A stretch of DNA of 64,000 nucleotides, taken from positions 60,971 through 124,970 of the forward strand of contig NZ_KB908326.1 of assembly GCF_000382385.1 (NCBI RefSeq), in the 5' to 3' direction. Position 1 is the stretch's first letter; the number at the start of each line of letters is the position of its first letter. The DNA is from Segatella maculosa DSM 19339 = JCM 15638 (GTDB lineage: Bacteria; Bacteroidota; Bacteroidia; Bacteroidales; Bacteroidaceae). The position numbers and the translations under genes were made by a program. The notes beneath the pieces are model-generated. The model searched no databases. It was not told the DNA's origin and saw only the letters and a program-made list of their open reading frames with translations. Positions 4,626-43,568 of this stretch are shown here, piece after piece.

Positions 4626-5084
4626 TGTAGGGACACACGGCTCGTGCGTCCACTCAACACACTACATTCACAAAGCAGGCCATTCAAGAAGATTGTTCCA
4701 CCGGAGCGGACGCACGAGCCGTGCGTCCCTACATACCGATTGCAACCCTCTAAACCTTTAACTCCAGCAGGAAGCAACATCATTGAAGCCTCCGTTTGCG
4801 TGTAGGGACGCACGACTCGTGCGTCCACTCAACACGCTACATTCACCAAACAGGCCATTCAAGGGGGTTATCCCCATGGAGCGGACGCACGAGCCGTGCG
4901 TTCCTACATACCGATTACAGCCCTCTAAATCTTTAACTCCAGCAGAAAGCAACATCATTGAAGCCTCCGTTTGCGTGTAGGGACGCACGGCTCGTGCGTC
5001 CGCTCAACACGCTACATTCACCAAACAGGCCATTCAAGGGGGCTATTCCCATGGAGCGGACACACGAACCGTGCGTCCCTACAT
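4626..5084. repeat. tandem array of three REP/BIME-like modules, 175-bp period
   Basis: Three modules of 109 bp start at 4626, 4801 and 4976, exactly 175 bp apart. Each consists of a left arm (TGTAGGGACGCACGG followed by CTCGTGCGTCC) and, about 50 bp later, the reverse-complement right arm ending in GTGCGTCCCTACA. Each arm is itself a hairpin (GGACGCACG / CGTGCGTCC). The 66 bp between modules is also nearly identical between copies. The array fills the gap between the PafA-like and acid phosphatase genes (4574-5170); I see no gene in it. Short ORFs here encode stretches such as THEPCVPT and RDARLVRP, which come from the hairpins and are not proteins. Confidence 0.95.
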
Positions 5085-5108
5085 CGCAAAAAGGCCTTTC
5101 AAGCTCGC

Positions 5109-5143
5109 TCTCCCCTCCCCTCGGGAGGGGCTGGGGGTGGGTC
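5109..5143. repeat. G-rich hairpin repeat, copy 1
   Basis: C-rich then G-rich arms (CTCCCCTCCCC / GGGAGGGG) followed by CTGGGGGTGGGT. The same element recurs at 6504, 6712, 8901 and 9081. The + strand run of four G tracts fits a G-quadruplex pattern. It ends 28 bp past the 3' end of the acid phosphatase gene, on the terminator side. Confidence 0.85.
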
Positions 5144-5170
5144 TTTGGAGGCCAAGGGTGGCCCTTTTGT

Positions 5171-6442
5171 CTACTGACTCACTCTTTCGCAATACGCCCT
5201 CACGTCTTTCCAATGATAATATGGGTAAAGATCGGTCTTAATGGGCAGCTTTGCTTCGTTCTCATTGCGCAATATTTTCACCAAAATGTCGTCACTTCCC
5301 GCCTTCCGATAGAACACAAACTGCAGGTTGCAGGCCATGGGAAAGATGCGATAGTCGCTCCATCCGATTGCAGGAAGCTGCTCCAAGTCGGCCACTTGCA
5401 CCCCTGTTCCGTCCAAACCCAGCAGACATGTCAGCGGCATCACCATCGTATCGTGACCGTAACGCAGCGTTGCTCCGGGGTGATTCAGGCGCAAACAGCT
5501 GTCAGCCTCACTGACAATCTTCCGCAAAAGATAGCGCTGTGAAGTCGGTTGGCGGCCGCCGTTGAGTGGCGAAGGCCCAAAGTTTATGTACCACCATGCG
5601 TTACCTATCTGCCAAATATCATAGATTTCGTCATCGTTAAAAAGGTCATAAAGCGACATTGAATGGCGCAGTTCGGTGCTCTGAAGATTGGCCGCTTGTT
5701 TGAAAAGCAGCTCATACAGCTTCCCAAAATCCACTTGTTTCTGCCAGTAATCATCGTCGTTGAAGAGCAAACGCATCACACGTTCGGGATGGAAATGGCG
5801 GTTTCTGAAAGCCTCGAATGTGGCTTTCACCTCCTTGGGCATGCGTGTTTTGAAGAGAGCAGTGTCCGCGTAATTCATGTAATACATGTCGTGATGGCTG
5901 GCATCGTGGCTGATTTCCAACGCAGGATTCATGCGCGCGAGTTGCTGCAACGCGTTTTCCATGCTCAGAATGCAACGAATCACCGTCGTACTCTTGGCGT
6001 CAACATGGGTCTTTCCCTTGAAAATCTCGGGGAAATTCCGCATCATTCGCTCGGCAATTCCACGGTGTTGCTCGGCCCCGAGCTGCGTCAGTTCGCCGTC
6101 ACGACCGCGAGCAGCCTCACTGATACGGCGCAGTTTGGCGAGCACCTCCTGCCCTTTCGGCGTGAGTTTTCCAAGCGAGTCGGCCCTTTCAAGCCAGCGA
6201 ACGGGTCGTTGATAATCGCGGTTACCGATGAGCCAACGGCTGCCATGCCGTCCGTAATGGCTCAAATAGAACGGCACATAGCCCTTTGGTGCGGGCGTAA
6301 GTGTCTTTTGAAGCGGACCGGGATAGGCCAGATAATTACTCGCCGACAGCAGCCTGTCGGCCTTGAAGTCCTGCTTTGCCTGTTGTGCAAAGCTGCCGAG
6401 GCAGAGCGCCATCAGCGAAATAATAACGATTTTCCTTTTCAT
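5171..6442 (-). CDS. secreted histidine-type acid phosphatase (branch 2 histidine phosphatase family)
   Basis: 423 residues from the ATG at 6442. The frame stays open 61 codons further upstream, but that stretch runs through a repeat arm and lacks export features, whereas the chosen start gives a signal peptide (MKRKIVIISLMALCLGSFAQQ). The phosphohistidine motif is RHGSR in YLSHYGRHGSRW, and the proton-donor region is RYGHDTMVMPL near the C terminus. Family members hydrolyse phosphomonoesters, including inositol phosphates (phytase and MINPP types). MINPP enzymes usually have HAE at the second motif, while this one has HD, so a general acid phosphatase or AppA-like phytase is as likely. It acts outside the cytoplasm. 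Confidence 0.87.
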   Translation of the reverse strand: MKRKIVIISLMALCLGSFAQQAKQDFKADRLLSASNYLAYPGPLQKTLTPAPKGYVPFYLSHYGRHGSRWLIGNRDYQRPVRWLERADSLGKLTPKGQEVLAKLRRISEAARGRDGELTQLGAEQHRGIAERMMRNFPEIFKGKTHVDAKSTTVIRCILSMENALQQLARMNPALEISHDASHHDMYYMNYADTALFKTRMPKEVKATFEAFRNRHFHPERVMRLLFNDDDYWQKQVDFGKLYELLFKQAANLQSTELRHSMSLYDLFNDDEIYDIWQIGNAWWYINFGPSPLNGGRQPTSQRYLLRKIVSEADSCLRLNHPGATLRYGHDTMVMPLTCLLGLDGTGVQVADLEQLPAIGWSDYRIFPMACNLQFVFYRKAGSDDILVKILRNENEAKLPIKTDLYPYYHWKDVRAYCERVSQ

Positions 6443-6503
6443 ACGCTTACAAAGATAAGCAATTTTTGCCACCATAAAATAAAAATAACAAAGAAAAACA
6501 AAA

Positions 6504-6535
6504 ACCCACCCCAGCCCTCCCAAAGGGAGGGAGCC
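6504..6535. repeat. G-rich hairpin repeat, copy 2 (reverse orientation)
   Basis: ACCCACCCCAGCCCTCCCAAAGGGAGGG is the reverse complement of the element at 5109. It lies upstream of the acid phosphatase start, between that gene and the repeat module at 6584. Confidence 0.8.
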
Positions 6536-6583
6536 CAAACTTGCGGACAAATAGGCTTGCATATAAAGGAAAAAGGCTTCGAA

Positions 6584-6691
6584 TGTAGGGACGCACGGCT
6601 CGTGCGTCCGCTTAAACAATCTCATAAAACCAAGTAGTTCACATTCCTATTACATCATCTTGAGCGGACGCACGAGCCGTGCGTCCCTACA
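6584..6691. repeat. REP/BIME-like module (108 bp)
   Basis: Left arm TGTAGGGACGCACGG/CTCGTGCGTCC at 6584 and its reverse complement ending CCCTACA at 6691, with about 47 bp between. Same family and nearly the same length as the modules at 4626-5084. It is part of the 918-bp gene-free stretch 6443-7360. Confidence 0.93.
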
Positions 6692-6711
6692 TGCCGAAGC
6701 CATCCAAGCTC

Positions 6712-6750
6712 ACTCTCCCCTCCCTTTGGGAGGGGTTGGGGGTGGGTTTT
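6712..6750. repeat. G-rich hairpin repeat, copy 3
   Basis: CTCTCCCCTCCCTTTGGGAG followed by GGGTTGGGGGTGGGTTT. Forward orientation, 20 bp from the end of the preceding REP-like module, so the two families sit side by side here as they do at 5084/5109. Confidence 0.85.
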
Positions 6751-6930
6751 TGAGGGATAGAGGTGGGTTTTAAATTCCTTTACAAATGCTTTCGCATCGC
6801 TCGCGCATTTAAAACCGACGACTCCGCGGCTACAAATACGCGCCATATTCGCCAAGTTGCAAATTATTGACCATCAAATAATTGCACAATTCGAAAAGAA
6901 ACGAACTGCAATCACAGACAAAAAGCGAAG

Positions 6931-7057
6931 CAATATGGGTGGGTTTGCAAGGTGAAATGGCTGAAATAACAAGGTAAAATGACTGAGATAGCGATGCAAA
7001 ACAACTGAGATAGCGATGCAAAATAGGTGAAATGGCAATGCAAAACGGTGGAAATGG
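6931..7057. repeat. degenerate copy of the short-unit repeat family (family 2)
   Basis: Units such as GGTGAAATGGCTGAAAT, GGTAAAATGACTGAGAT and two units containing ACTGAGATAGCGATGCAAAA with a 22-bp period. They resemble the units in the palindromic arrays at 13.3, 22.9, 30.9, 43.3 and 59.7 kb, but here all lie in one orientation and the outer palindrome is absent. Part of the non-coding interval upstream of rpoN; small ORFs across it on the minus strand are repeat translations. Confidence 0.7.
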
Positions 7058-7302
7058 TATTCCAAAGAGCGCGAAACAAGAAAACAGCCTGCACTTTCTT
7101 GCAACGAAATACCCGGTTTTTTGCTTTTCCGTTTCTATTTCAGCAGTCTCCGAAGTGTTAAAAACAGGGAGAGAATATTTACAAAAAGACCTTCTTCCTC
7201 CCCTCTTTCGCGCCTTGTACACCGTCACATTGCATCGGCAAACAAGCACGTATGTATCGAAAAGAAGATGGAAACAGACTTTTAATTATTTCTCTTTTTG
7301 CT

Positions 7303-7332
7303 TTGATTTGTCTATGATAATCTCTATCTTTG
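7303..7332 (+). promoter_or_regulatory. promoter of rpoN
   Basis: TTTG at about 7303-7306 and TATCTTTG at 7325-7332 match the Bacteroidetes housekeeping promoter (TTTG, about 19 bp, TAnnTTTG). The rpoN start codon is 28 bp downstream. Confidence 0.8.
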
Positions 7333-7360
7333 CAAGTGTTGAAGGCTATCTCCATACATC

Positions 7361-8872
7361 ATGGCTCAAAAACTCATACAAACGCAGGAACAAAAGCTGG
7401 TACAACAGATGCGACTCTCGCAGCAACAGATGCTGCAAGTGCACCTGCTGGAGATGCCGTTGACCGAACTTGAGGAGAATATCAACGCTGAACTCGATGA
7501 CAATCCGGCCTTGGAAAAGGCGGAAAACGACTTGGGGCAGACCGAAAACGAGGGAGAAAACGAACTTGAAAACGGTAATGAAGCCGACGATTTCGACAGC
7601 CTCAACGAGAAAGAAGAGCGGCAGGACGCCCTCGATTCGGTCTTGGAAGGCATCGAAGGTGATGATGCCATGCCCCTACCCTACGCCAACAACCACGATA
7701 ATGCCGACTATGAGGAGACCGTTTACGGCGATACAACGTCGTTCTATGACAAACTGAAGGAGCAAATGGACATGCTCATGCTTACCGAAAAAGAGCATGC
7801 CGTGATGGAATATCTTATCGGTAGCCTTGATGACGACGGACTTCTGCGCAAGGATTTGGGTACGATTGGCGACGAACTTGCCATCTATCACAACATCGAC
7901 ATCAGCGAACCAGAACTCGAAAAGCTGTTAAAACTACTCCAAAGCATGGACCCTGCGGGCATCGGAGCACGCTCGTTGCAAGAATGTTTGCTGCTTCAAG
8001 TGGAGCGAATGCGCGAAGATGGCCGTAACGACCGCTTGTTAGATGCCATGGAGCGCGTTTTCAAAGAGTGTTTCGAGGCCTTCAAGAAGAAGCATTGGGA
8101 TAAAATCAAGTTACAACTTGGGCTGAACGACACGCAAACAGAGACACTTCAACGCGAAATTCACAAGCTGAATCCGAAGCCGGGAGCCTCACTTGGCGAG
8201 ACCGAAGGACGCAACATGCAACAGATAACGCCCGATTTTATCATCGATACCGACGACGACGGCACGGTGACCTTCACGCTCAACCAAGGCAATATCCCCG
8301 AACTAAAAGTCTCACCTGCGTTCAACGAGATGGTAAAAGCCTATCGCGGCAACAAGAAAAGCATGAGCCGACAAACCAAAGAGGCCCTACTCTACGCCAA
8401 AGAAAAGGTGGCCAAGGCACAGGGTTTCATTGAGGCCATAAAGCAACGCCGCCGCACTTTGACGCTCACCATGCAGGCCATCATCGACTGGCAAAGGCGC
8501 TTCTTCCAAGAAGGTGACGAGAGCGAGCTGCGACCTATGATACTTAAGGACATTGCCGACAAGACCGGACTCGATATTTCGACCGTAAGTAGGGTGAGTA
8601 ACGTCAAATATGCGCAGACAAAATGGGGCACTTTCCCCCTCCGTTTCTTCTTTACTGACTCCTATACCACGGGAGAAGGTGAGGAAATGTCAACGCGAAA
8701 GATAAAAATGGCCCTGAAAGCCGTCATCGAAAAAGAGGACAAAAGCAAGCCGTTAAGCGACGAAGCACTGACCAAACTGATGAAAGAAAAAGGGTTCCCG
8801 ATAGCCCGTCGCACGATAGCAAAGTACAGGGAGCAACTCAATATACCCGTGGCAAGGTTGAGAAGAGGGTGA
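7361..8872 (+). CDS. rpoN: RNA polymerase sigma-54 factor
   Basis: 503 residues. Region I is the Gln/Leu-rich N terminus (LVQQMRLSQQQMLQVHLLEMP), which contacts activators. It is followed by an acidic region II (about residues 45-115, rich in Glu, Asp and Asn), then the core-binding domain, and finally the helix-turn-helix and the RpoN box ARRTIAKYREQLNIP close to the C terminus. It directs RNA polymerase to -24/-12 promoters and needs AAA+ activators; none is encoded in this window. Length is normal for the family. It is preceded by its own TAnnTTTG promoter and followed by two G-rich repeats. Confidence 0.97.
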   Translation: MAQKLIQTQEQKLVQQMRLSQQQMLQVHLLEMPLTELEENINAELDDNPALEKAENDLGQTENEGENELENGNEADDFDSLNEKEERQDALDSVLEGIEGDDAMPLPYANNHDNADYEETVYGDTTSFYDKLKEQMDMLMLTEKEHAVMEYLIGSLDDDGLLRKDLGTIGDELAIYHNIDISEPELEKLLKLLQSMDPAGIGARSLQECLLLQVERMREDGRNDRLLDAMERVFKECFEAFKKKHWDKIKLQLGLNDTQTETLQREIHKLNPKPGASLGETEGRNMQQITPDFIIDTDDDGTVTFTLNQGNIPELKVSPAFNEMVKAYRGNKKSMSRQTKEALLYAKEKVAKAQGFIEAIKQRRRTLTLTMQAIIDWQRRFFQEGDESELRPMILKDIADKTGLDISTVSRVSNVKYAQTKWGTFPLRFFFTDSYTTGEGEEMSTRKIKMALKAVIEKEDKSKPLSDEALTKLMKEKGFPIARRTIAKYREQLNIPVARLRRG

Positions 8873-8900
8873 GCCTCCCCCACTCACCCATTGCTCCTAA

Positions 8901-8936
8901 CACCCACCCCCAGCCCCTCCCCAAGGGAGGGGAGAC
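8901..8936. repeat. G-rich hairpin repeat, copy 4 (reverse orientation)
   Basis: CACCCACCCCCAGCCCCTCC then CCAAGGGAGGGGAG, 28 bp after the rpoN stop codon. It faces copy 5 at 9081, so the rpoN/PAP2 gap (8873-9121) holds an inverted pair of these elements and no gene. Confidence 0.85.
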
Positions 8937-9080
8937 CAAATTTGCAGGCTATTTTATAGCAGACATAGCACAACGACACATGTTTAAGACATGATAAAGC
9001 AGATGAAGTAATTCATAAACAAATATATAAAGATTCATTTTCCTCCATTCTAAAGAGTAGAAAACCTTTCATGAGTTTGT

Positions 9081-9115
9081 ACTCCCCTCCCTTGGGGAGG
9101 GGTTGGGGGTAGGTT
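9081..9115. repeat. G-rich hairpin repeat, copy 5
   Basis: CTCCCCTCCCTTGGGGAGGG followed by GTTGGGGGTAGGTTT. It ends only 6 bp before the ATG of the PAP2-like gene, so on mRNA its hairpin would sit in the translation initiation region. Confidence 0.85.
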
Positions 9116-9121
9116 TAGTCT

Positions 9122-9739: not shown

Positions 9740-9784
9740 AAAATCAATAAAAGTAAACAATAAACTCATCAAAACAATACAATT

Positions 9785-10291: not shown

Positions 10292-10317
10292 AGCGGCCGT
10301 AGCAAGCTACCAATCTT

Positions 10318-13208: not shown

Positions 13209-13302
13209 TGTAGGGACGCACGGTTCGTGCGTCCGCTCAAGGGGAATAATAAATAAATACATAAGATTAATAGAACGGACGCGCGGCTCGTGCGTCCCTA
13301 CA
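13209..13302. repeat. REP/BIME-like module (94 bp)
   Basis: TGTAGGGACGCACGG/TTCGTGCGTCC at the left and an inverted right arm ending GTGCGTCCCTACA. The interior is AT-rich. This is the short (94-bp) version also seen at 22732 and 24127. It lies just after the aldo/keto reductase gene within the gene-free interval 13181-13530. Confidence 0.92.
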
Positions 13303-13343
13303 TGCAGTCAATTGGAAATCAACGACTTGCATCTTACTTTTTA

Positions 13344-13427
13344 ATATTACCCATTTTGCGCGCTAAAATGGGTCATATTAGCGTGTAATATGGCTGAAAT
13401 TACACGGCAAAATGGCTGAGATTAAAT
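13344..13427. repeat. family 2 palindromic short-unit array
   Basis: Contains CCCATTTTGCGCGCTAAAAT followed by GGGT, a hairpin of its own, then units ATATGGCTGAAATTACACG and GCAAAATGGCTGAGATTA. It belongs to the family at 22.9, 30.9, 43.3 and 59.7 kb. It lies 42 bp from a REP/BIME-like module, the usual arrangement in this window. Confidence 0.85.
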
Positions 13428-13530
13428 CACAAGATGAATGAAACAAAAAAGCGGGATAAATTTGGTTACAATCCAATAGGAACCCATAAACCACTCCATC
13501 TCCATTCATTAGAATGGAAAAAACGGGTGT

Positions 13531-22731: not shown

Positions 22732-22825
22732 TGTAGGGACGCACGGCTCGTGCGTCCGTTCCATCAATATTGAAAGGTATATCCACGTGGTTTAATGAGC
22801 GGACGCACGGCCCGTGCGTCCCTAC
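22732..22825. repeat. REP/BIME-like module (94 bp) plus an unpaired arm at 22882-22914
   Basis: Left arm TGTAGGGACGCACGG at 22732 and inverted right arm ending CGTGCGTCCCTACA at 22825. A third arm, again in the right orientation (GCAGACGCACGG... ending CCTACA), follows at 22882-22914 without a partner. Between them, CACCCGTTTACTTGTCTATT resembles the spacer of the arrays at 31 and 43.5 kb. Confidence 0.92.
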
Positions 22826-22931
22826 ATGCATACGAGCATTTAACTTGCTCACCCGTTTACTTGTCTATTGTTAACTGAAGCGGGGAGCAGACGCACGGGC
22901 CGTGCGTCCCTACATGCATCATATTGAAAAC

Positions 22932-23014
22932 CAATATCAGCCATATTATCGCACAATGTCAGCCATATTGCGCGGTAAAGTGGGTGATATTGCGCGACGA
23001 TATGGCTGATATTG
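22932..23014. repeat. family 2 palindromic short-unit array
   Basis: CAATATCAGCCATAT (22932-22946) and ATATGGCTGATATTG (23000-23014) are perfect 15-bp outer arms. Inside are smaller units AATGTCAGCCATATTGCGCGG and GATATTGCGCGACGATATGG. It starts 18 bp from the unpaired REP arm. The rest up to the dehydrogenase gene at 23254 is AT-rich without a recognisable gene. Confidence 0.88.
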
Positions 23015-23208
23015 TCAACTGCGATGAGGAAAACGGAAAAGTAAAACGATGGAAAATGGCTTGTAAAAAACGGAAGATAGAGTCCGGAGGTCGATTATCC
23101 TTACTTTTTATTTCTATTTCATGGTACTCCGAAGTGTTAAAATTAGCGTACATTTTTTTACAAAACAAATTTCCATTCATTTATGGCAGGATTTTAAAAT
23201 AAATGATA

Positions 23209-24126: not shown

Positions 24127-24220
24127 TGTAGGGACGCACGGCTCGTGCGTCCACTCAAACAATCATACATATACACCTGCAATTCACCCTAAACGGACGC
24201 ACGAACCGTGCGTCCCTACA
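24127..24220. repeat. REP/BIME-like module (94 bp)
   Basis: TGTAGGGACGCACGG/CTCGTGCGTCC and its inverted partner ending GTGCGTCCCTACA, 94 bp in all. It fills the first part of the gap 24058-24511 between the KduD-like gene and metK. Confidence 0.93.
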
Positions 24221-24372: not shown

Positions 24373-24400
24373 CGGCAAGTTAATAGATTATGTATAACAA

Positions 24401-24452
24401 TTGTGGAAAAATTTGGCTGCTTGCAACCACATAAAAAAATGCTAAAACTGCA
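24401..24452 (+). promoter_or_regulatory. SAM-II-like riboswitch in the metK leader
   Basis: P1 is TGTGG (24402-24406) with CCACA (24427-24431). The loop holds ATTTGGCTGCTTGCAA, and the strand after the stem is TAAAAAAATGCTAAAACTGC. From memory this follows the SAM-II pattern: GTGG, an ATTTG segment, CTTGCA then CCAC, an A-rich linker and GCTAAA that folds back as a pseudoknot. It sits in the leader of metK, whose product makes SAM. A second CCAC-GCTAAAAAG string at 24489-24500, and TTCCAC complementary to GTGGAA, could form the alternative fold close to the start codon. Confidence 0.7.
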
Positions 24453-24511
24453 AAATCCTCTCTGATTTTACGGTTACTTGGTGTTGTTCCACGCTAAAAA
24501 GTAATAGAAAA

Positions 24512-30595: not shown

Positions 30596-30637
30596 AAAAG
30601 CGTCGGAAGATTGAGTTTTCAATCGTCCGACGCTTTT
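30596..30637 (+). terminator. intrinsic terminator after tRNA-Gln
   Basis: AAAAGCGTCGGA and TCCGACGCTTTT are perfect 12-bp arms, and an inner GATTGA/TCAATC pair extends the stem. The following 30638-30860 has no gene I can recognise. Confidence 0.92.
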
Positions 30638-30862
30638 CGTTTTCCCCCGCTGTTTGGCCTATATTGATGGCCCATTCAAGCATTCATGAGGAGGAATTGA
30701 CGTTTGATGTTGGCCCACTTGATAAATGATGAGGACAAACAAGAAGGAGGTAAGAGATAAACCGCATCGTGGCTTCGTTGTTTATGCAGCAAATGTGCTA
30801 CTTGCTTCCCTGCCATCATATACCGATTTGCCTTGAATGGCAAACAAATATGTATGGTTAAT

Positions 30863-30894
30863 GGAGCGGACGCACGCTCCGTACGTCCCTACAT
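30863..30894. repeat. single REP arm
   Basis: GGAGCGGACGCACGCTCCGT then ACGTCCCTACA: a right-orientation arm with no partner nearby and several changes in the stem, so probably a decayed module. Confidence 0.8.
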
Positions 30895-30930
30895 ACGTTC
30901 AGGCTGATAATCAATGGCTTACACCTTGTG

Positions 30931-31019
30931 TTTCAATCTCAGCCATATCGCGTGGTAAAATGGCTGAGATTGCGCGGTAAAATGACCCATATTAGCGTGC
31001 AAAATGGCTGAGATTGAAA
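30931..31019. repeat. family 2 palindromic short-unit array
   Basis: Outer arms TTTCAATCTCAGCCAT and ATGGCTGAGATTGAAA are perfect 16-bp inverted repeats. Inside are GCGTGGTAAAATGGCTGAGAT, TGCGCGGTAAAATGACCCAT and ATTAGCGTGCAAAATGG. Almost the same array occurs at 43328. Confidence 0.9.
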
Positions 31020-31040
31020 CGCAACATAGTTGACAGTGGA

Positions 31041-31457
31041 CGAGTAAACAAATTGGCAAGTTGATTGTTCCGCGCAGAACGGACGCACGAGCCGTGCATC
31101 TCTACATACCCACATTGCCCATATTGATGTGTAAAATGATGGATAGGGCGAGCTGCTCGAATGCATGTAGGGACGCACGGCTCGTGCGTCCGCCCACGTT
31201 TTAGTTAACAGTGAACGAGTAAACAAATTGACAAGTTGATTGTTCCGCGCCAAACGGACGCACGAACCGTGCGTCCCTACATACCCACCTTGTCCATATT
31301 GATGTGTAAAATGATGGATAGGGCGAGCTGCTCGAATGCATGTAGGGACGCACGGCTCGTGCGTCCGCCCATGTTTTAGTTGATAATGAACGAGTAAACA
31401 AATTGGCGAGTTGATTGTTCCGCGCAGAACGGACGCACGGGCCGTGTATCTCTGCAT
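31041..31457. repeat. second tandem array of REP/BIME-like modules, 175-bp period
   Basis: The string CGAGTAAACAAATTG begins at 31041, 31216 and 31391, exactly 175 bp apart. Each unit carries a right arm (GGACGCACGA...), the spacer CCATATTGATGTGTAAAATG / GGATAGGGCGAGCTGCTCGA, then a left arm starting TGTAGGGACGCACGG (31166 and 31341). The third unit is partial. Spacer sequence is unrelated to that of the array at 4626, but the period is the same. ORFs on the minus strand here are repeat translations. Region 31458-31571 has no gene. Confidence 0.93.
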
Positions 31458-31604
31458 GTTCCTCTCAACCATTTTGCGCATTTCCATCTTTGGAACATAA
31501 TGCTTATTCCTTTTCTTTCGATTGCAAAGTGGCCCGTTCTCCTTTGCAACTCGGTTGCGAAAAAAAACTTATACCTTTGCCTTTAGAAATCAAAATAAAG
31601 AAAT

Positions 31605-33506
31605 ATGGCACACGAAGCACATAGCCATGAACATGGCGGAGGCGAAATGAACTGGAAACTTATCGTCGTTTCGGCAGTATTCTTAGTGATAGGACTGCTT
31701 CTTGACAATGTTGAGACGTTCGGGTTCATTAATCCTTACCTCGTTCTCCTTATCTATATAGTGGCCTTTATGCCTGTGGGACTGCCCGTGATGCGCGAAG
31801 CTTGGGAGCAAATCGAGCACGAACGCGACTTCTTCAGCGAGTTTATGCTCATGTCGGTGGCTGCCATTGGCGCCTTTTTCTTGGGAGAATACCCCGAAGC
31901 CGTAGCCGTTATGTTGCTCTATTGCGTGGGCGAAGGCCTGCAAGACAGGGCGGTCGACCGTGCACGCGACAGTATCAAGCGGCTCATAGCCTTTCGTCCT
32001 GACTTCGCAAGGCTGGCAGATGGGCGCGAAGAACGGCCTGAAGCGGTGGCCATTGGCAGCGTTATCGAAGTGCGACCCGGTGAGCGTGTGCCCCTCGACG
32101 GCCGCCTTTTAGATGCTCCGGCCGCCTTTAATACGGCCGCTTTGACGGGCGAATCGGTGCCCCGAATGATAGAAACGGGTCACGAAGTTATGGCAGGAAT
32201 GATTGCAACCGACAGCATTGTGCGACTCGAAGTGGTGCGCGAAGCAAGCGAAAGTGCCATCAGTCGCATTCTGAAAATGGTGGAAGAGGCGGCCGAGCGC
32301 AAGTCATCTACCGAGGCATTTATCCACCGTTTCGCCCATGTCTACACGCCTGTGGTGATAACCTTGGCCGTGTTAGTGGTCGTTGTGCCGTGGTTGGCCT
32401 CGCTGTTTTCGGCAACAGACTATGCGTTTTCCATGTGGTTGCAGCGCGCTTTGGTCTTTTTGGTCATCAGTTGTCCGTGTGCTTTGGTCATCAGTGTGCC
32501 CTTGGGCTACTTCGGGGGCATTGGTGTTGCAAGCCGAAAAGGCATTCTTTTCAAAGGAAGTAATGGGCTTGATGCCGTCACAATGCTTGATACGGTGGTG
32601 TTCGACAAGACAGGTACGCTCACAACGGGGGCGTTTCGGGTGGAGCAAACCGTGGGTCTTTCGCCCGAAGACTTGGCTTTTGTGGCCGCCGTTGAGGCCA
32701 AAAGCAGTCACCCGATAGCCCGTGCTGTCGTCGAATTCATGCAGGGAAAGCCGCTTGCAACAGTCGATTCGGCCCATATAGTGAACGTTCCCGGCTACGG
32801 AATGACCTGCGGAACGTGGGCCATTGGGACGCTTCGGCTGATGAAAAAACAGGGAATTGCCTACGATGAGGCCTTGAATGAGGTGGCAGAAACAATCGTT
32901 GCCGTGGCCCATGACGGCCGTTTCGTGGGCTATATTCTGCTGGCCGACACGCCGAAAGCGGGCATTTTTACGCTCCCTCAACGCCTGAAAGCCCAGGGAA
33001 TCAAGTTGATGCAGGTGCTTAGTGGCGACAAACAGGCCCTCATCGACAAGCTGATAGCGGGCTTTCATGGGCATGGTTTCGTGAAAGGTTATGGAGATTT
33101 GCTTCCCGAAGACAAGGTTTCGCATCTTGAAGCATTGAAGAAAGAGGGAAAACGGGTTGCTTTCGTGGGCGACGGCATCAATGATGCGCCTGTATTGGCC
33201 TTGAGTGACGTGGGTTTTGCCATGGGAAACATGGGCGCAGACATGGCAGTTGAGACCGCAGATGTCATCATTCAGACCGACGAACCGGCTAAGGTTGTCG
33301 AGGCAATTGCCATTGGTAGGCGCACACGTCGCATCGTTTTGCAGAACATTGTCTTTGCCATTGGCGTGAAAGTGTTGGTGATGGTGCTCGGAGTCTTAGG
33401 CGTGGCGACCCTTTGGGAGGCTGTCTTTGCCGACAGCGGTGTGGCTTTATTGGCGGTGATGAACAGCATAAGGCCGCTCCATCGGCCCCGATTTGAAGAG
33501 AAATAG
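31605..33506 (+). CDS. heavy-metal P1B-type ATPase, Zn/Cd-type
   Basis: 633 residues. Actuator motif ALTGESVPR, transmembrane metal motif SCPCALVISVPLGYFGGIGV, phosphorylation site FDKTGTLTTG, nucleotide-binding SSHPIARAV and hinge GDGINDAPVLA are all intact. The CPC motif with a following Ser/Val-rich helix points to the ZntA/CadA group exporting Zn, Cd or Pb. The usual N-terminal HMA domain is missing; instead the N terminus is a short His-rich segment MAHEAHSHEHGGG. TACCTTTG at 31572-31579 is a probable -7 element. No metal-responsive regulator is adjacent. Confidence 0.93.
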   Translation: MAHEAHSHEHGGGEMNWKLIVVSAVFLVIGLLLDNVETFGFINPYLVLLIYIVAFMPVGLPVMREAWEQIEHERDFFSEFMLMSVAAIGAFFLGEYPEAVAVMLLYCVGEGLQDRAVDRARDSIKRLIAFRPDFARLADGREERPEAVAIGSVIEVRPGERVPLDGRLLDAPAAFNTAALTGESVPRMIETGHEVMAGMIATDSIVRLEVVREASESAISRILKMVEEAAERKSSTEAFIHRFAHVYTPVVITLAVLVVVVPWLASLFSATDYAFSMWLQRALVFLVISCPCALVISVPLGYFGGIGVASRKGILFKGSNGLDAVTMLDTVVFDKTGTLTTGAFRVEQTVGLSPEDLAFVAAVEAKSSHPIARAVVEFMQGKPLATVDSAHIVNVPGYGMTCGTWAIGTLRLMKKQGIAYDEALNEVAETIVAVAHDGRFVGYILLADTPKAGIFTLPQRLKAQGIKLMQVLSGDKQALIDKLIAGFHGHGFVKGYGDLLPEDKVSHLEALKKEGKRVAFVGDGINDAPVLALSDVGFAMGNMGADMAVETADVIIQTDEPAKVVEAIAIGRRTRRIVLQNIVFAIGVKVLVMVLGVLGVATLWEAVFADSGVALLAVMNSIRPLHRPRFEEK

Positions 33507-33644
33507 CACCGCTTCCCAGCCCTATACCCAAGGAGAGGGAAGCAGAACGCTTTGAAAACAGAACATGAGAATGTTATGATTGGACAATAAACCGGCCCCC
33601 TTTGCCTTGGAAGGGCAGCCGGGTTAGAAACTTTTCTTCTCCTT

Positions 33645-35027
<1,383 letters not shown>

Positions 35028-36536: not shown

Positions 36537-36554
36537 ATCGATTGCAGGAAAGGA

Positions 36555-36572: not shown

Positions 36573-36647
36573 CAATGTCAATCAAGTCACACAAGGCTGC
36601 AAACGATTGACAGAACAAAGAATATTCACATTAAAAACGAAAACATT

Positions 36648-37232: not shown

Positions 37233-37283
37233 GACTAGCCGCCATAAAGGTAAGAAAAACAAACTACACAGGATAACATACAC

Positions 37284-37321
37284 GACAAAGGAAGCTAGCT
37301 ATAAGGCCTGCTTCCTTTGTC
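37284..37321 (+). terminator. intrinsic terminator after sodB
   Basis: GACAAAGGAAGC and GCTTCCTTTGTC are perfect 12-bp arms with a 14-nt loop; a T-rich stretch is part of the second arm and continues after it. Confidence 0.8.
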
Positions 37322-37486
37322 TTTGTATCCCCATAGAGGTCTCATCTAACCGATAGGTCGCATGATTTCTGTCGGAATTTGATGGATATTGGGAAAAAAT
37401 CCGTAAGTTTGCAGGGAGAAGAATACGGGCGGTAAGCAGAGAACAATGCAGCCCCGACCTCTTCAAACAAGCAAAAACAGAATGCA

Positions 37487-37873: not shown

Positions 37874-37908
37874 CCTCGTAAAGGTACTTGCATATCGACC
37901 GTGAAACC

Positions 37909-38349: not shown

Positions 38350-38358
38350 GAAAAAGCC

Positions 38359-39183
38359 ATGTCTCTACTGTCTTCTATCCTTTATCCTGCGCCCCGTTTG
38401 CATGAAAGCCGACTGAAAAACCGGTTCAACGGCCGGTGGGTGGTCGTCACGGGAGCCTCACATGGCATCGGTGAAGCCTTGGTTCGAAGGCTGATGCACT
38501 GTGGGGCTAATCTCTATTTGCTGGCAAGAAGCGAGCCCGAATTGCAGGAGCTGTGTCGCGAAGCACGTGCGATGGGTTGCCGTGCAAGCTACCGTTGCGT
38601 CGATTTACGCGACAGATTGGCATTGAATTCTGTGTGCGGTGACTTGGCAAAAACGCTGCCATCGGTGGACTTTCTCTTCTGTAATGCGGGCAAATCCATC
38701 TGCCGCAGCCTTGTAGATGCAACCGACCGGCTGCACGATTTCGACCGGACAATGGACCTGAACTACCGTTCCATGGTGGCATTATCGCTCACTTTACTGC
38801 CTGCTTTGCGCCGAACTGGCGGCCAACTTGTCTACACTTCGTCGGTCAGTAGCCTTTATCCTCCGGCCCCAAAGTGGTCAGCTTACCATGCTTCCAAGTG
38901 CGCTTCTAACGTTTGGTGCCGCACAGCTGCGTGCGAATGGCATTCACTTGGCATCGGTGTCCACGTGGCCTATCTGCCTTTGGTGCGCACGCCAATGTCG
39001 CAAGTCAACCCAAACTACCACGCACTTCCGGCTTATTCGGCCCACGATGCCGCCGGAATCCTGTTGCGATTGGCCTTGAGTAATCGCTTTGCCTACAAGC
39101 CGTGGTGGGCCTGGGTGACTGCTCCTGTGGCCTCGTTCCTTGCACCTTTCGTTCGATTCTTTTATCAAAAAGCCGCCCGATGA
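38359..39183 (+). CDS. short-chain dehydrogenase/reductase
   Basis: 274 residues. NAD(P) site VVVTGASHGIGEALVRRL, NAG motif FLFCNAGKS, catalytic Ser in LVYTSSVSSLYPPAPKWSAY with the Tyr-x3-Lys of SAYHASK. The C terminus (KPWWAWVTAPVASFLAPFVR) is hydrophobic and may attach to the membrane, as in reductases of long-chain ketones or sphingoid bases. It overlaps the acyl-AMP ligase gene by 4 bp, which suggests action on the same lipid or acyl substrate; that is inference. Confidence 0.87.
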   Translation: MSLLSSILYPAPRLHESRLKNRFNGRWVVVTGASHGIGEALVRRLMHCGANLYLLARSEPELQELCREARAMGCRASYRCVDLRDRLALNSVCGDLAKTLPSVDFLFCNAGKSICRSLVDATDRLHDFDRTMDLNYRSMVALSLTLLPALRRTGGQLVYTSSVSSLYPPAPKWSAYHASKCASNVWCRTAACEWHSLGIGVHVAYLPLVRTPMSQVNPNYHALPAYSAHDAAGILLRLALSNRFAYKPWWAWVTAPVASFLAPFVRFFYQKAAR

Positions 39184-40673
39184 ACCTGTCTTTGCTCCGT
39201 TCCCTTGTGCGTTTGCATCTCATTACGCCGCGCGGCATCATGCGATTGCTGGATTGTCTGCTGCGCGAAGGCATCACGTTGATGGCCGTTCTCCGCTTTT
39301 CGGCTCGCTATCATGCGGCAGATTGCGCCTTGATTGCCGACGGTGAGCGCATCGATTACAAGGAGTTTTACCACCGAGCACGGTTGTTAGCCGGTATATT
39401 GTACGCTGATTACGGTTTGAAAAGCGGCGACCGTGTGGCCTTGCTGTGCCGCAATCACATGGCTTCGGCCTTGCTCCTGCCGGCCCTTTCACGCTTGGGC
39501 GTTCACGTGAAACTGCTGAACACCGACCTTGGAAGCCGACAATTGGCCCACCTGATGGCCCGTCCTTTCGCACTTTTCATCTATGATGAGGCCGAAAATA
39601 CAGCCATGTCGGTGCCCGATTCCTGTCCGAAAACATCGTGCGAAACGCTGATGAAGCGCATGAGAGTACAGCCGTCGACAGTCCGCATTCCCCTTCCTTA
39701 TATAAAAAGAGGTGGAGTCATCAGCGTGTTGACGGGCGGTTCGAGCGGCAACTACAAGGAGGCTGCCCGCCAAACCGGCATTTTTGCGTTCCTTTCTCCA
39801 TTCTTTTCGCTGCTTCAAGACGTCCATATTGACCGCTATCAGAGCGTGCTTTTGGTCCTTCCCTTCTATCATGGTTTCGGCTTGGCCACGTTGATTATCT
39901 CGCTTGTCATGGGCAAACGGATTTGTCTTTTGCGTCATTTCGATACGAATGTGCTTGATACGATAGCAAAAGAGCACATAGAGGTGATGCCAATCGTGCC
40001 GGCTATGCTCGCAAGATTGTGGCAATCGGAACATGCCGAGGCCCGGATGAAATCGCTGAAATGCCTCATCAGCGGGGGTGACAGGCTGGAAAAGCTGTTG
40101 GTTGAGAGGACTTCGGCGAGCTTGGGTGATGTGCTTTACAACCTTTACGGCACATCGGAAGCGGGCTTTTTCATGCTGGCTATGCCGCAAGAATTGCTTC
40201 GTGGTGATGAAGTTTCCATCGGAAGACCTATCCGCGGCATGCAATGTGCCGTCAGAGATGCCGACGATGAAGGCGTAGGAACGCTGTGGGTGAAGTGCAA
40301 ATGGGCCATGAACGGTCGGCAAAATCGCTGGCAATCGACGGGCGACCGCGTGTTTCAAGCACCCGACGGCCGTTATTTTCATCGCGGAAGAGCCGACAAA
40401 ATGGTGGTTTGTGGGGGCGAAAACGTCTATCCGGAGCATGTGGAAGCGTGTTTGAAAGCCCACCCTTCGATTGCCGAAGCACTGGTCTTTGCCGTTCCCG
40501 ACGCCCGTTTCGGCTCGGTACTTCACGCTCGGATAGAACCTCAAAAAGGGGCCGTGCTCACCGAAGACGCGTTGAAACAATGGCTGAAGCCACAGATTTC
40601 GCGGGCCGAAATGCCCCATCGCTTCATCTTTTCCCCCATAAAAATACTGTCAACGGGCAAGAAAAGCCGATGA
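39180..40673 (+). CDS. AMP-binding acyl-CoA synthetase-like ligase
   Basis: 497 residues from the ATG at 39180 (the frame extends upstream inside the dehydrogenase gene). ANL superfamily: phosphate loop VLTGGSSGNYKEAARQTG, A5 motif LYNLYGTSEAGF, A7-type STGDRVFQAPDGRY and A8 region HRGRADKMVVCGGENVYPEH, with the terminal Lys in ILSTGKKSR. It should activate a carboxylic acid as an acyl-adenylate and pass it to CoA or a carrier. The hydrophobic N-terminal part suggests a fatty acid. No carrier protein is adjacent. Confidence 0.88.
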   Translation: MNLSLLRSLVRLHLITPRGIMRLLDCLLREGITLMAVLRFSARYHAADCALIADGERIDYKEFYHRARLLAGILYADYGLKSGDRVALLCRNHMASALLLPALSRLGVHVKLLNTDLGSRQLAHLMARPFALFIYDEAENTAMSVPDSCPKTSCETLMKRMRVQPSTVRIPLPYIKRGGVISVLTGGSSGNYKEAARQTGIFAFLSPFFSLLQDVHIDRYQSVLLVLPFYHGFGLATLIISLVMGKRICLLRHFDTNVLDTIAKEHIEVMPIVPAMLARLWQSEHAEARMKSLKCLISGGDRLEKLLVERTSASLGDVLYNLYGTSEAGFFMLAMPQELLRGDEVSIGRPIRGMQCAVRDADDEGVGTLWVKCKWAMNGRQNRWQSTGDRVFQAPDGRYFHRGRADKMVVCGGENVYPEHVEACLKAHPSIAEALVFAVPDARFGSVLHARIEPQKGAVLTEDALKQWLKPQISRAEMPHRFIFSPIKILSTGKKSR

Positions 40674-40791
40674 AAAACGCCTGCCCTGAGCCGGCCGGAT
40701 TTCTTATTTTTGCTGTCTTCTCAGTTTGTTTGAGCAACAAACTCCTTGTCCTTATCGCTCAATTTCGGCCATTTTATGCCTAAACGTCCTT

Positions 40792-42165
40792 TTACCGTTT
40801 TACGCTTTTACCTTTTAACCTTTTCATAAGCCACCAAAATGCGGGGATAAGGAACAAATCTGCCATCACCCAAGCCACGGGATCGGCATAGCAAACGCCC
40901 GTCCAAGTCAACGCCGGCACCAACCAAAGGCTCACACCGCAGCGGGCTAACATCTCCATCACGCCGCTCATCATGCTCAAATTGCTGTAGCCGAGCCCTT
41001 GAATGCTGTAGCGTAGAATGACAAGAATGCCCAACGAAGGATAGAACCAGTTGGCGATGCGCATCAAAAGAGCGGCATTTGCAATCACTTCCTGCTCGCC
41101 GTTATTGACGAAAAGCATCATCATTTCGTCGGCAAATGGGTAGATGACGGCCACGGTCAGCACGAAATAGACGAGCATAACGAGCATGGCATCCTTCACA
41201 CCTGACTTGATTCGGTCGATACGACCAGCCCCGATGTTCTGTCCGCAATAGGTCGCCATGGCCACACCTATGTTCTCCAGCACGCAAGTAAAGAGGTATT
41301 TGATGCGCAAAGCAGCTGTGAATGAGGCCACATATACTGTACCAAGCGCGTTATTTGCACTCTGTAACATGATGATTCCAATGCCTGTTATCGAGAATTG
41401 TAGGCCCATTGGCACGCCATTATTCAAGAGAATGCTTATCCTTTTGTTGTCGAATTGTCGTTCATCTCCCTGTGGAACGAGCATCGGCATGTGGCGTCTG
41501 ATGAACCGATAGCACAGCCATGAGGCGAAAGCCTGACTGAGTAGCGTGGCTATTCCGGCCCCTTCGACACCCATTCCCAGCAGCAGAATGAGCACCACGT
41601 CAAGCAAAATGTTCACCAACGACGATACAATCAGGAAATAAAAAGGCTGCTTTGAATTGCCCAAAGCCCTGATTTGACCGGCATAAAGATTATAAGTTAT
41701 GGTGAAAGGAATGGCGCAAAACTGAAGGAAAAGGAACACATAAGCATCGTGAAAAATGTCATTCGGCGTGTTAACAAGCTGGAGAATCTTCTCGCAAAGC
41801 AGGCATGAAAGCAGCGTAATGACCACGGAAAACACCATGGCAATGCGCAAAGCATTGCTCACATAGCACCGCATTTTGTGGTAATCTCCAGCACCGAAGG
41901 CCTGAGCCACAGGAATTGCGAAGCCCGCACAGGCCCCGTTGCAGAAGCCCATGATGAGAAACATGATGCTACTTGAAGCACCTACGGCGGCCAAAGCGTT
42001 CACTCCAATCCACCGACCCACGATGGCTGCGTCGATAATCAGGTACATCTGTTGCAGCAGATAGCCCAAAATCAAGGGCACGGCAAACTTCAATATGGCG
42101 CGAGCAGGGGCACCTTCGGTCATATTTTCAATGTGGAGCGAGGATTGTTGCGTGTGAGAAGACAT
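40792..42165 (-). CDS. MATE family efflux transporter
   Basis: 457 residues from the ATG at 42165 (MSSHTQQSSLHIENMTEGAP); another in-frame ATG lies 14 codons in, and the frame also extends upstream. Twelve hydrophobic segments, with the MATE start MTEGAPARAILKFAVPLILG and the repeat-2 equivalent NGVPMGLQFSITGIGIIML. It exports cationic compounds using Na+ or H+. Substrate unknown. It is divergent from the ABC ATPase gene, and 188 bp separate them. Confidence 0.92.
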   Translation of the reverse strand: MSSHTQQSSLHIENMTEGAPARAILKFAVPLILGYLLQQMYLIIDAAIVGRWIGVNALAAVGASSSIMFLIMGFCNGACAGFAIPVAQAFGAGDYHKMRCYVSNALRIAMVFSVVITLLSCLLCEKILQLVNTPNDIFHDAYVFLFLQFCAIPFTITYNLYAGQIRALGNSKQPFYFLIVSSLVNILLDVVLILLLGMGVEGAGIATLLSQAFASWLCYRFIRRHMPMLVPQGDERQFDNKRISILLNNGVPMGLQFSITGIGIIMLQSANNALGTVYVASFTAALRIKYLFTCVLENIGVAMATYCGQNIGAGRIDRIKSGVKDAMLVMLVYFVLTVAVIYPFADEMMMLFVNNGEQEVIANAALLMRIANWFYPSLGILVILRYSIQGLGYSNLSMMSGVMEMLARCGVSLWLVPALTWTGVCYADPVAWVMADLFLIPAFWWLMKRLKGKSVKR

Positions 42166-42341
42166 ATGAGGGAATGTTGAATGCGAATTGTTGAATGTGG
42201 AATTGAATGAGTAACTCGTGTAGAATGAAGCATGTTCAATGAGCATTCAAATCATAAAGTTCAAAGTTCAAACGCCAAAGTTCAATGCTAAAAGCTTACG
42301 CTTTTCCTTTGCAAAATTATAAAAGATTATAGATAAAAGTG

Positions 42342-42349
42342 TATCTTTG
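42342..42349 (+). promoter_or_regulatory. -7 element very close to the ABC ATPase start
   Basis: TATCTTTG ends 4 bp before the ATG at 42354. With the start site expected a few bases after this element, the mRNA would be leaderless or nearly so. Confidence 0.55.
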
Positions 42350-42353
42350 CGGC

Positions 42354-43115
42354 ATGGAAACCGTCGTTTTGGAACATTTAACCATCGGATACACGGGAAA
42401 ACAGGTGGCAAGCGACTTGCAAGCGGCCCTTCAGGCGGGCGAGTTCACATGCCTGTTGGGCCCGAATGGCGTGGGAAAATCGACGCTCTTGCGCACGCTT
42501 TCGGGCTTTCTCCGCCCGCTCGAAGGCTGCGTTCGCCTCAATGGAAGGGACATTTCGAATCTCACGCCCCATGAACGTGCCGGGCAAATTGGCGTGGTGC
42601 TCACCACGAAACCCGATGCCGGACACATCACGGTGGCCGAGCTTGTGGGCATGGGACGCTATCCTTACACCGGGTTCTTCGGCACCTTGCGCAACCGCGA
42701 CCGCCGGATTGTCGACGAAGCCTTGGCATTGGTGGGCATAGAAACGTTGAAAACGCGGTTGATAGGCACGCTGAGCGACGGCGAACGGCAGAAGACCATG
42801 ATCGCAAAAGCACTGGCCCAGCAAACGCCGGTGATATTCCTTGACGAGCCGACGGCCTTTCTCGACTTCCCCAGTAAGGTGGAAACGATGCAGCTGTTGC
42901 GCCGTTTGGCCCACGAACTCCATAAGACAATCCTCCTTTCCACGCACGATATCGAACAGGCTTTGCAGGTTTCCGACCGCCTTTGGCTCATGGATAGCGG
43001 TGCACTCCACGTGGGATCGCCGCGCCAACTGGCTGCCGACGGTTCGCTATCGCGTTTCATTCAGCGCGGCAACATACGCTTCGATGCCGACAACCTGCGT
43101 GTGTTCATCACATAG
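42354..43115 (+). CDS. FecE/BtuD-type ABC transporter ATP-binding protein, without adjacent permease
   Basis: 253 residues. Walker A LLGPNGVGKSTLLRTLSG, Q-loop in GVVLTTKPDAGHIT, the degenerate signature LSDGERQKTMIAKALAQ, Walker B VIFLDEPTAFLD and the switch His in LLSTHDIEQAL. The profile is that of ATPases of iron-siderophore, heme or cobalamin importers. No permease or binding protein gene lies next to it in the window, so its partner must be elsewhere. Divergent neighbour is the MATE gene. Confidence 0.9.
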   Translation: METVVLEHLTIGYTGKQVASDLQAALQAGEFTCLLGPNGVGKSTLLRTLSGFLRPLEGCVRLNGRDISNLTPHERAGQIGVVLTTKPDAGHITVAELVGMGRYPYTGFFGTLRNRDRRIVDEALALVGIETLKTRLIGTLSDGERQKTMIAKALAQQTPVIFLDEPTAFLDFPSKVETMQLLRRLAHELHKTILLSTHDIEQALQVSDRLWLMDSGALHVGSPRQLAADGSLSRFIQRGNIRFDADNLRVFIT

Positions 43116-43327
43116 AAACGCCTCGCTGAAGGCTGTGAGACGCTCAATGGCGATATGCCCCCTTATATCTTCACGGACAAAAGAGCAGCACACTCAAGTA
43201 AGTTCGATACGTTGATGCCGATGAAATCTTATATCTCTACGGATAAAAACACTGCCCTGAAAAGCAACCCTAAAGATCTTATTTTCCGCCTCCGCCCACC
43301 CCGTTTTTCCGTTTCAGCCGTTTCGGT

Positions 43328-43416
43328 TTTCAATCTCAGTCATTTCGCCGTGCAATCTCAGCCATTTTGTGCGGTGAAATGGGCCATATTGCACGACAAA
43401 ATGGCTGAGATTGAAA
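43328..43416. repeat. family 2 palindromic short-unit array
   Basis: Outer arms TTTCAATCTCAGTCAT and ATGGCTGAGATTGAAA differ at one base. Inner units GCAATCTCAGCCATTTTGTG and GCACGACAAAATGGCTGAGA repeat the motif. Closely related to the array at 30931. It lies in the gene-free stretch 43116-43892. Confidence 0.9.
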
Positions 43417-43452
43417 CGCAAGGTCCAAGTCGTTGATTATCAATATGAAGCA

Positions 43453-43568
43453 TGTAGGGACGCACGGTCCGTGCGTCCGCCCACGTTTTAGTTAACAGTG
43501 AACGAGTAAACAAATTGGCAAGTTGATTGTTCCGCGCAGAACGGACGTACGAACCGTGCGTCCCTATA
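43453..43568. repeat. REP/BIME-like module (116 bp)
   Basis: TGTAGGGACGCACGG left arm, spacer TTTTAGTTAACAGTGAACGA / GTAAACAAATTGGCAAGTTG, right arm ending GTGCGTCCCTATA. Length and spacer match the modules of the array at 31041 rather than those at 4626, so this module and that array share ancestry. Confidence 0.92.

What the first reader, a model, noticed from the sequence alone, without database searches (positions are those of the whole stretch)
4626..43568. A REP/BIME-like family of paired hairpins, each preceded by GTAG, recurs in at least seven intergenic regions
Seen: modules at 4626 (x3), 6584, 13209, 22732, 24127, 31166 (x2) and 43453, plus unpaired arms at 22882, 30863 and 31081. 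Each arm is a hairpin GGACGCACG / CGTGCGTCC flanked by TGTAG on one side, and arms occur in inverted pairs. Known: REP sequences mobilised by RAYT (TnpA-REP) proteins are hairpins with a conserved GTAG or GGAG foot, and inverted pairs form BIMEs. Inference: this is a RAYT-dependent repeat family in a Bacteroidetes genome. No RAYT gene is in the window, and I do not know of a description of this family.
Basis: partly seen in the sequence, partly recalled or inferred. Interest (0 to 1): 0.8.

Follow-up and report, generated by a model that had tools for sequence, protein, structure and literature searches.

The report
Orphan REP hairpins lacking their transposase
This bacterial genome carries about four hundred copies of a short DNA hairpin, which in the stretch examined lie between recognised genes and mostly in mirror-image pairs; related bacteria carry the same hairpin around and inside a transposase gene that likely spread it, yet no such gene was detected in this genome.

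Summary
The window holds 23 hairpin arms, GTAG-GGACGCACG-NNN-CGTGCGTCC: ten outward-facing inverted pairs and three single arms, in seven regions between recognised genes. TGTAG is intact in 21 of 23 arms found by stem alone. The assembly holds about 400 arms (403 hits at up to 2 mismatches, reversed-pattern control 0). Of 398 genomes of the genus searched, own included, 13 hold any; the next richest has 24. In G164 a RAYT-type gene (L084) lies between two 98%-identical 86-nt inverted pairs of this hairpin and carries one arm in frame. In G053 a related gene (L091) lies between pairs whose stem is changed on both sides. In 80 RAYT-like loci, hairpins with a GTAG-like foot lie inside 53 and within 500 nt of 45. 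This is a REP/BIME family, a known kind. It is close to RAYT subclass 2.4, but two printed features of that subclass are not met. The twist: the genome with the most copies shows no RAYT by four searches, one with a profile that includes the cognate RAYTs. Loss after amplification is likeliest, with precedent in E. coli. New member of a known kind, moderate interest.

The parts
4626..4733 (.). inverted pair of arms (GTAG outward), first of three in a 175-nt tandem array
4801..4908 (.). inverted pair, second of three
4976..5083 (.). inverted pair, third of three; the orthologous gap in G016 is about 75 bp and has no arm
6584..6691 (.). inverted pair
   Evidence: folds -41.3 kcal/mol as DNA against shuffle mean -11.35
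13209..13302 (.). inverted pair between an aldo-keto reductase gene (+) and mutS (-), convergent
22732..22826 (.). inverted pair between RNase III and short-chain dehydrogenase genes
22889..22914 (-). single unpaired arm
24127..24220 (.). inverted pair between the dehydrogenase gene and the SAM-II riboswitch of metK
30868..30893 (-). single arm; counterpart in G016 (L109 at 4489)
31081..31106 (-). single arm with AGATGCACG stem; the same variant is in G016 (L109 at 4276)
31166..31281 (.). inverted pair in a 175-nt tandem array that is 350 nt shorter in G016
31341..31456 (.). inverted pair in the same array
43453..43568 (.). inverted pair between an ABC ATPase gene and a TonB-dependent receptor gene

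Best explanation
The repeats are REP/BIME elements: hairpins with a 5' GTAG foot, in the window mostly in outward-facing inverted pairs, whose stem also flanks and lies inside a RAYT-type transposase gene of a congener, and such a transposase likely copied the pairs around this genome before its gene was likely lost. The predicted mechanism is that of characterised TnpA-REP proteins: the Y1 HUH enzyme would bind the folded strand, use GTAG to choose a CT-type cleavage site near the hairpin, and move or copy the pair. Shown here: the arms, the feet, the pairs, pairs with related linkers at distant loci, RAYT-type genes beside the same or a both-sides-changed stem in two congeners, and no detectable RAYT gene in this assembly. 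Inferred: mobilisation by that RAYT, and loss of the gene.
For: Copy number and chance control. Foot intact in 21 of 23 arms found by stem alone. L084 (177 aa, MPNHLH, WQ, Y163) lies between 86-nt inverted pairs 98% identical to each other, with one in-frame arm. L091 lies between outward pairs with stem GGACGCTC/GAGCGTCC. The L084 model's best PDB fold match is 4er8, a RAYT bound to a REP hairpin (E 1.1e-6; TM 0.55/0.59), also the only PDB sequence hit of profile A3 at E<=0.01 (E 1.6e-4). In 80 RAYT-like loci of genome contigs (the 80 kept of 377 confirmed), hairpins with foot G[TG][AG]G lie inside 53 and within 500 nt of 45, at 1.80 per kb near the gene against 0.098 per kb further out. With GTAG only, 29 of 80 have hairpins both inside and beside; the first 8 stem bases agree within one in 23 of 29 (mean 5.0, maximum 12 in 2000 permutations). 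In sampled own loci, 40 of 52 distinct outward neighbours under 130 nt share a recognisable linker with another, in 7 clusters. Arms differ at 4.9% against 17.6% for the rest in 9 tandem copy pairs. G016, the best-matching congener, has 2 arms and lacks the pairs at the orthologous phosphatase gap.
Against: No RAYT in this genome: Pfam Y1_Tnp 0 hits (though Pfam also misses L084 and L091); profile A1 (four non-cognate RAYTs) best E 0.035, at a place whose other frame reads as an ordinary protein start; profile A3 (with L084 and L091) best E 2.66, four weak hits, at or beside arm places and over the arm-encoded part of the model, only 150 of 689 candidates scored; L091 protein best E 0.09 over 46 residues, with no frame over 68 aa there. 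Of the other 12 carriers, G053 and G164 hold a close RAYT; G273 (with a fragment), G132 and G016 have more distant hits; the remaining seven have none at E<=10. G164 is only 83% complete with 5% contamination. Exact insertion boundaries were not resolved, because G016 flanks are too diverged. The two loops of a pair match no more than by chance (8 of 47, permuted mean 12.4), so the long-hairpin form shows no sign of selection. Lacking a Y1 gene is not rare: 48 of 120 genomes of the genus gave no Pfam Y1 hit.
Confidence: 0.85

Rival explanations
1. The RAYT still acts on these arms: either the gene sits in an assembly gap or in sister strains, or an enzyme supplied in trans moves them. The population is then active, not orphaned.
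For: The assembly has 60 contigs, so a gap is possible; all of the roughly 100 places listed (of 605) match with 0 mismatches, which suits recent activity; L084 has 1033 homologues at E<=1e-5, so horizontal supply is plausible.
Against: Completeness is 99.88%; four searches find nothing convincing.
Confidence: 0.2
2. The pair is a MITE: a short element with about 30-nt terminal inverted repeats, moved by a cut-and-paste (DDE) transposase.
For: Outward pairs with near-identical ends and variable linkers resemble MITE ends.
Against: Three of 23 arms are unpaired; linkers are of many kinds, with arm-to-arm distances from 41 to 129 nt under a cut of 130; the foot stands on one side of the stem only; the same arms flank a RAYT-type gene. 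Target-site duplications were not tested, nor was a search made for DDE transposases between arms.
Confidence: 0.04
3. The arms are fixed transcription terminators or mRNA 3'-end stabilisers, not mobile DNA.
For: No window arm overlaps a family-supported gene; as RNA one arm folds to -16.6 kcal/mol against shuffle mean -8.98; arms change more slowly than linkers.
Against: 385 of 398 genomes of the genus searched have none; the same arm lies in frame inside a transposase gene; none of the terminator-like sites listed for window 4401-44000 (26 and 28 in two overlapping scans, about as many as in shuffles) falls on an arm. A side role in RNA is not excluded.
Confidence: 0.04

Closest known systems
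GTAG-tagged REPs with HH dimers (Di Nocera et al. 2013, PMC3733652; abstract, sections 5, 12 and 16 and passages read)
   Same: GTAG foot, stem within 6-13 bp, short loop, outward-facing dimers and tandem clusters; RAYT flanked by the same repeats
   Different: The main text names Bacteroidetes once, for CGTC repeats; 'GTAGGGAC' and 'Prevotella' do not occur in it. Its figures and additional files were not seen
TnpA-REP subclass 2.4 and its REPs (Quentin et al. 2018, PMC6006769; section 23 and passages read)
   Same: Bacteroidetes and Cyanobacteria; REPs inside the transposase gene without breaking the frame, generally between HUH and Y motifs
   Different: L084/L091 end the Y motif in YIxxN(I/V), not YIxNNP; the stem base here is GGA/TCC, not three G-C pairs, and the arms are not double-footed; 52 of the 120 listed homologues also carry an arm-like peptide near the N-terminus by my expressions; this genome lacks the gene
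E. coli REPs in strains without RAYT (PMC8049555, Figure 2 legend and passages; PMC6006769 passage)
   Same: REPs persist in genomes without the transposase
   Different: Other stem (recalled), other phylum; there RAYT-bearing strains have more copies, here the RAYT-less genome has by far the most of the genomes sampled
S. maltophilia REPtron Sm (PMC8266576, passages read)
   Same: Perfect stem interrupted by 3 nt, directly after GTAG (8 bp there, 9 bp here)
   Different: Other RAYT group; cleavage at CT is shown there, untested here

Membership tests
GTAG REP/BIME | short palindrome, stem 6-13 bp, short loop | tested here: met
   9-bp stem, 3-nt loop; one arm as DNA -11.5 kcal/mol, z -4.80
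GTAG REP/BIME | conserved GTAG on one side of the stem | tested here: met
   TGTAG in 21 of 23 arms found without using the foot; the other side has at most 2 of 5 matches in all 23
GTAG REP/BIME | many copies, extragenic | tested here: met
   403 hits at <=2 mismatches genome-wide; extragenic status checked only for the 23 window arms, 0 of 23 in family-supported genes, 8 in unsearched mechanical frames
GTAG REP/BIME | inverted pairs and tandem clusters | tested here: met
   10 outward pairs and 3 singles in the window, two 175-nt arrays; 18 and 58 outward pairs with exact outer 14 nt in the genome
GTAG REP/BIME | cognate RAYT flanked by the same repeat | tested here: met
   met in congener G164 and, with a both-sides stem change, in G053; not met in the window's own genome
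RAYT (TnpA-REP), for L084/L091 | Y1 HUH fold with catalytic HxH and Tyr | tested here: met
   NHxH and Y163 invariant in the 24 rows of A3; best fold match of the L084 model is 4er8; Pfam Y1_Tnp itself does not match either at E<=1e-3
RAYT subclass 2.4 | in-frame REP between HUH and Y motifs | tested here: met
   L084 in-frame arm at residues 105-113; 53 of 80 loci with an inside hairpin, mostly at 0.5-0.6 of the matched length
RAYT subclass 2.4 | motifs NH[IFV]H, WQ, YIxNNP (as printed in PMC6006769) | tested here: not met
   L084 reads NHLH, WQ, YIKSNI; L091 NHVH, WQ, YIRHNV: WQ met, end of the Y motif not; filed as close to 2.4, not as a member
RAYT subclass 2.4 | its REPs: three G-C pairs at the stem base, or a foot on both sides | tested here: not met
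   stem base GGA/TCC; both-sided feet 0 of 129 sampled own arms, though single double-footed places occur (G000:C4:49934)
GTAG REP/BIME | strand-specific cleavage by the cognate enzyme | not testable with these tools
   no biochemistry; a CT follows the stem at +2/+3 in 13 of 23 window arms (counted)

The most novel reading that the evidence does not exclude
A REP population of about 400 arms has outlived its transposase and is now kept by the host for the hairpins themselves: arms still change 3.6 times more slowly than their linkers in tandem copies although no RAYT is left to copy them.
Probability: 0.22. Interest if true: 0.65.

Novelty: new member of a known kind. Interest (0 to 1): 0.42.

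Why it matters
The REP/RAYT work I read rests largely on Proteobacteria. This gives a Bacteroidales genus (Prevotella by inference) in which the same hairpin can be followed with a RAYT-type gene (G164), as a both-sides-changed variant with its own RAYT-type gene (G053), as one to three stray copies (ten congeners), and as a population of about 400 with no detectable RAYT. It makes the question of what keeps REP populations after loss of the transposase testable by comparing strains.

Tried and rejected
Pfam PF01797 as the RAYT test: rejected as too weak, since it misses L084 and L091 themselves. The profile A1 hit in this genome (G000:C1:340337) was read in the three forward frames: another frame there reads as an ordinary protein start, not a RAYT. 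The L091 hit (G000:C21:37914) lies where no frame exceeds 68 aa. RAYT genes of G053 (L062) and G065 (L063) beside GTAGGGACATAAT hairpins, and others with further stems, were set aside as non-cognate. A first loop-pairing permutation was biased by sorting the arms and was replaced. In the arm-versus-linker test copy pairs whose non-arm part differed by 35% or more were dropped; their number was not printed. Empty-site mapping at 24127 failed because gene order differs in G016; at 13209 the neighbouring gene differs. Rfam at gathering score: nothing over the arms. Paper searches for the arm or for REPs with Bacteroidetes or Prevotella showed no description of this family; one search was too broad to be informative (28,237 papers, 12 listed), of 49 papers holding GGACGCACG only the 10 listed were seen, none with the 19- or 21-base arm, and no supplementary files could be read, so absence from print is not claimed.
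Full report
What is there. Twenty-three hairpin arms lie in seven regions between recognised genes. They were found by stem alone (GGACGCACG-NNN-CGTGCGTCC, up to 4 mismatches of 18); ten shuffles of the window give none. TGTAG stands directly before the stem in 21 of 23, and the opposite side never matches more than 2 of 5 letters, so each arm has a direction. Ten outward-facing pairs use 20 arms; three arms (22889, 30868, 31081) are single. No arm overlaps the 14 window genes listed, which were given to family searches; 8 arms overlap mechanical open frames that were not searched (4958-5542 +, 5663-6637 +, 30939-31487 -), and the start of the 5171-6442 gene is my choice. In the sampled own loci (window plus 65 loci, many overlapping; 129 distinct arms) the conserved unit is ATGTAG + stem + loop + stem + GCTC; that foot statistic is biased, because most of those loci were pulled with a pattern that includes the foot, so the window figure is the fair one.

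How many. In the assembly that holds the window (3.31 Mb, 60 contigs, 99.88% complete) the 26-base pattern gives 605 hits at up to 3 mismatches and 403 at up to 2; the reversed pattern gives 0 in this genome in both. At 3 mismatches some palindromes are counted on both strands, so about 400 is the better figure. Outward pairs with exact outer 14 nt number 18 with longer and 58 with shorter spacing. Among 398 genomes of the genus (drawn from a larger group, own included), 13 have any hit at up to 2 mismatches: own 403, G053 24, G164 10, the other ten 1-3 each. The genus is not named by any search; Prevotella is my inference.

The transposase. No RAYT gene was detected in this genome. Pfam Y1_Tnp gives 0 hits. 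A profile of four non-cognate RAYTs gives E 0.035 at a place that is not a RAYT. A profile of 24 sequences including L084 and L091 gives only four weak hits, at or beside arm places, at E 2.66 and worse (150 of 689 candidates scored, because the arms flood the first look). The L091 protein, which lacks the arm-encoded peptide of this stem, gives E 0.09 with 2 of 2 candidates scored, in a place without a frame over 68 aa. Pfam alone would not have been enough: it misses L084 and L091. In G164 (83% complete, 5% contamination) a 177-aa gene with MPNHLH, WQ and a Y motif lies between two 86-nt outward pairs, 98% identical to each other, with stem GGACGCACG/CGTGCGTCC, and holds a further arm in frame, read as RTHEPCVPT. 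In G053 a 166-aa relative (52% identical) lies between outward pairs with stem GGACGCTC/GAGCGTCC, a change on both sides of the stem. AlphaFold2 on the L084 alignment gives mean pLDDT 80; the arm-encoded residues 105-113 fall in a low-confidence loop (blocks 101-110 mean 54, 111-120 mean 72) between the strand that bears the HUH motif and the next helix. The best PDB fold match is 4er8, a RAYT bound to a REP hairpin (E 1.1e-6).

The kind in general. Hairpins with a GTAG-like foot (G[TG][AG]G) lie inside the gene in 53 of 80 and within 500 nt in 45 of 80, several loci being cut by contig ends; density is 1.80 per kb near the gene and 0.098 per kb further out. With GTAG feet only, 29 of 80 have hairpins both inside and beside, and in 23 of these 29 the first 8 stem bases agree within one; 2000 permutations give mean 5.0 and maximum 12. 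Loci with stems like the present one include MAGs of Coprobacter (L125) and Muribaculaceae (L126) and Porphyromonas uenonis (L127). Among the 120 protein homologues listed (of 1033), 44 carry a recognisable arm peptide both near the N-terminus and inside; in 42 both are of one type, one has both N-terminal types, and one is discordant; 32 show neither (the expressions are mine). [quoted passage not shown] Two printed features of that subclass are not met: the Y motif YIxNNP, and REPs with three G-C pairs at the stem base or a double foot. I therefore call this close to 2.4 rather than a member.

Movement and age. Pairs appear to have spread as units: of 52 distinct outward neighbours (under 130 nt) in sampled own loci, 40 share a recognisable linker with at least one other, in 7 clusters (14, 10, 5, 4, 3, 2, 2); some clusters are tandem copies at one place, but the cluster of ten is drawn from seven source loci. 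G016, the best match (orthologues 76-85% identical), has 2 arms in all. Its gap between the orthologues of the phosphatase genes is about 75 bp without an arm, where the window has about 600 bp with three pairs. Both G016 arms lie in a segment 92-97% identical to window 30618-34930 (its part 31804-33658 missing in G016), well above the other regions aligned, which suggests recent transfer of that segment; there the window has 6 arms and G016 has 2, and the window is 350 nt longer, two 175-nt units. Whether the units were gained here or lost there is open. Exact insertion boundaries could not be fixed. In 9 tandem copy pairs the arms differ at 23 of 468 sites and the remainder at 178 of 1014 (Fisher p 1.6e-12). 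Pairs with 35% or more difference outside the arms were dropped, the first arm of each copy was used to find the copies, and gene conversion among 400 arms would give the same signal, so selection is not proven. The two loops of a pair match no more than by chance (8 of 47, permuted mean 12.4), so the single arm, not the long hairpin, looks like the conserved unit.

Mechanism. Characterised TnpA-REP enzymes bind the folded GTAG strand and cleave near it, commonly at CT, with GTAG as a likely guide (PMC8266576, passages). In the window a CT follows the stem at +2/+3 in 13 of 23 arms (counted); whether it is cut is untested. REPs in RAYT-less genomes are known from E. coli (PMC8049555 and PMC6006769 passages). 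The most likely account is amplification by a RAYT like L084, then loss of the gene; a gap, a strain difference or supply in trans remain open. Terminator-like sites do not fall on the arms.

Verdict. The unusual part is that, of the 398 genomes sampled, the one with by far the most arms has no detectable RAYT.

Noticed in passing
window 6929-7074, 13313-13463, 22925-23039, 30905-31033, 43302-43416, 59661-59775: A second repeat family: imperfect 22-nt units around AAAATGGCTGAGATTG in both orientations, several right beside the hairpin arms; related stretches occur in G016.
   Followed up: partly
window 5112, 6515, 6717, 8914, 9084: A C-rich palindromic repeat (CCCTCCC...GGGAGGG, in some copies followed by TTGGGGGTGGGT), five matches of one expression; similar stretches in G016.
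   Followed up: no
window 30618-34930: Aligned parts are 92-97% identical to G016 while other aligned regions are 76-85%; probably a recently exchanged segment. G016 lacks 31804-33658, most of a metal P-type ATPase gene.
   Followed up: partly
window 24397-24455: SAM-II riboswitch (65.5 bits) upstream of metK, with a hairpin pair just upstream of it.
   Followed up: no
L062 1467-1991 and L063 3266-3790: RAYT genes of G053 and G065 beside inverted pairs GTAGGGACATAATTCATTATGTCC: a second RAYT/REP pairing in the genus.
   Followed up: partly
P0057, P0073, P0105: RAYT homologues with several translated arm-like peptides in a row, as if arms kept inserting in frame.
   Followed up: no
window 43599-43688: Tandem repeat with period 44 built on AAAGTTC.
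   Followed up: no
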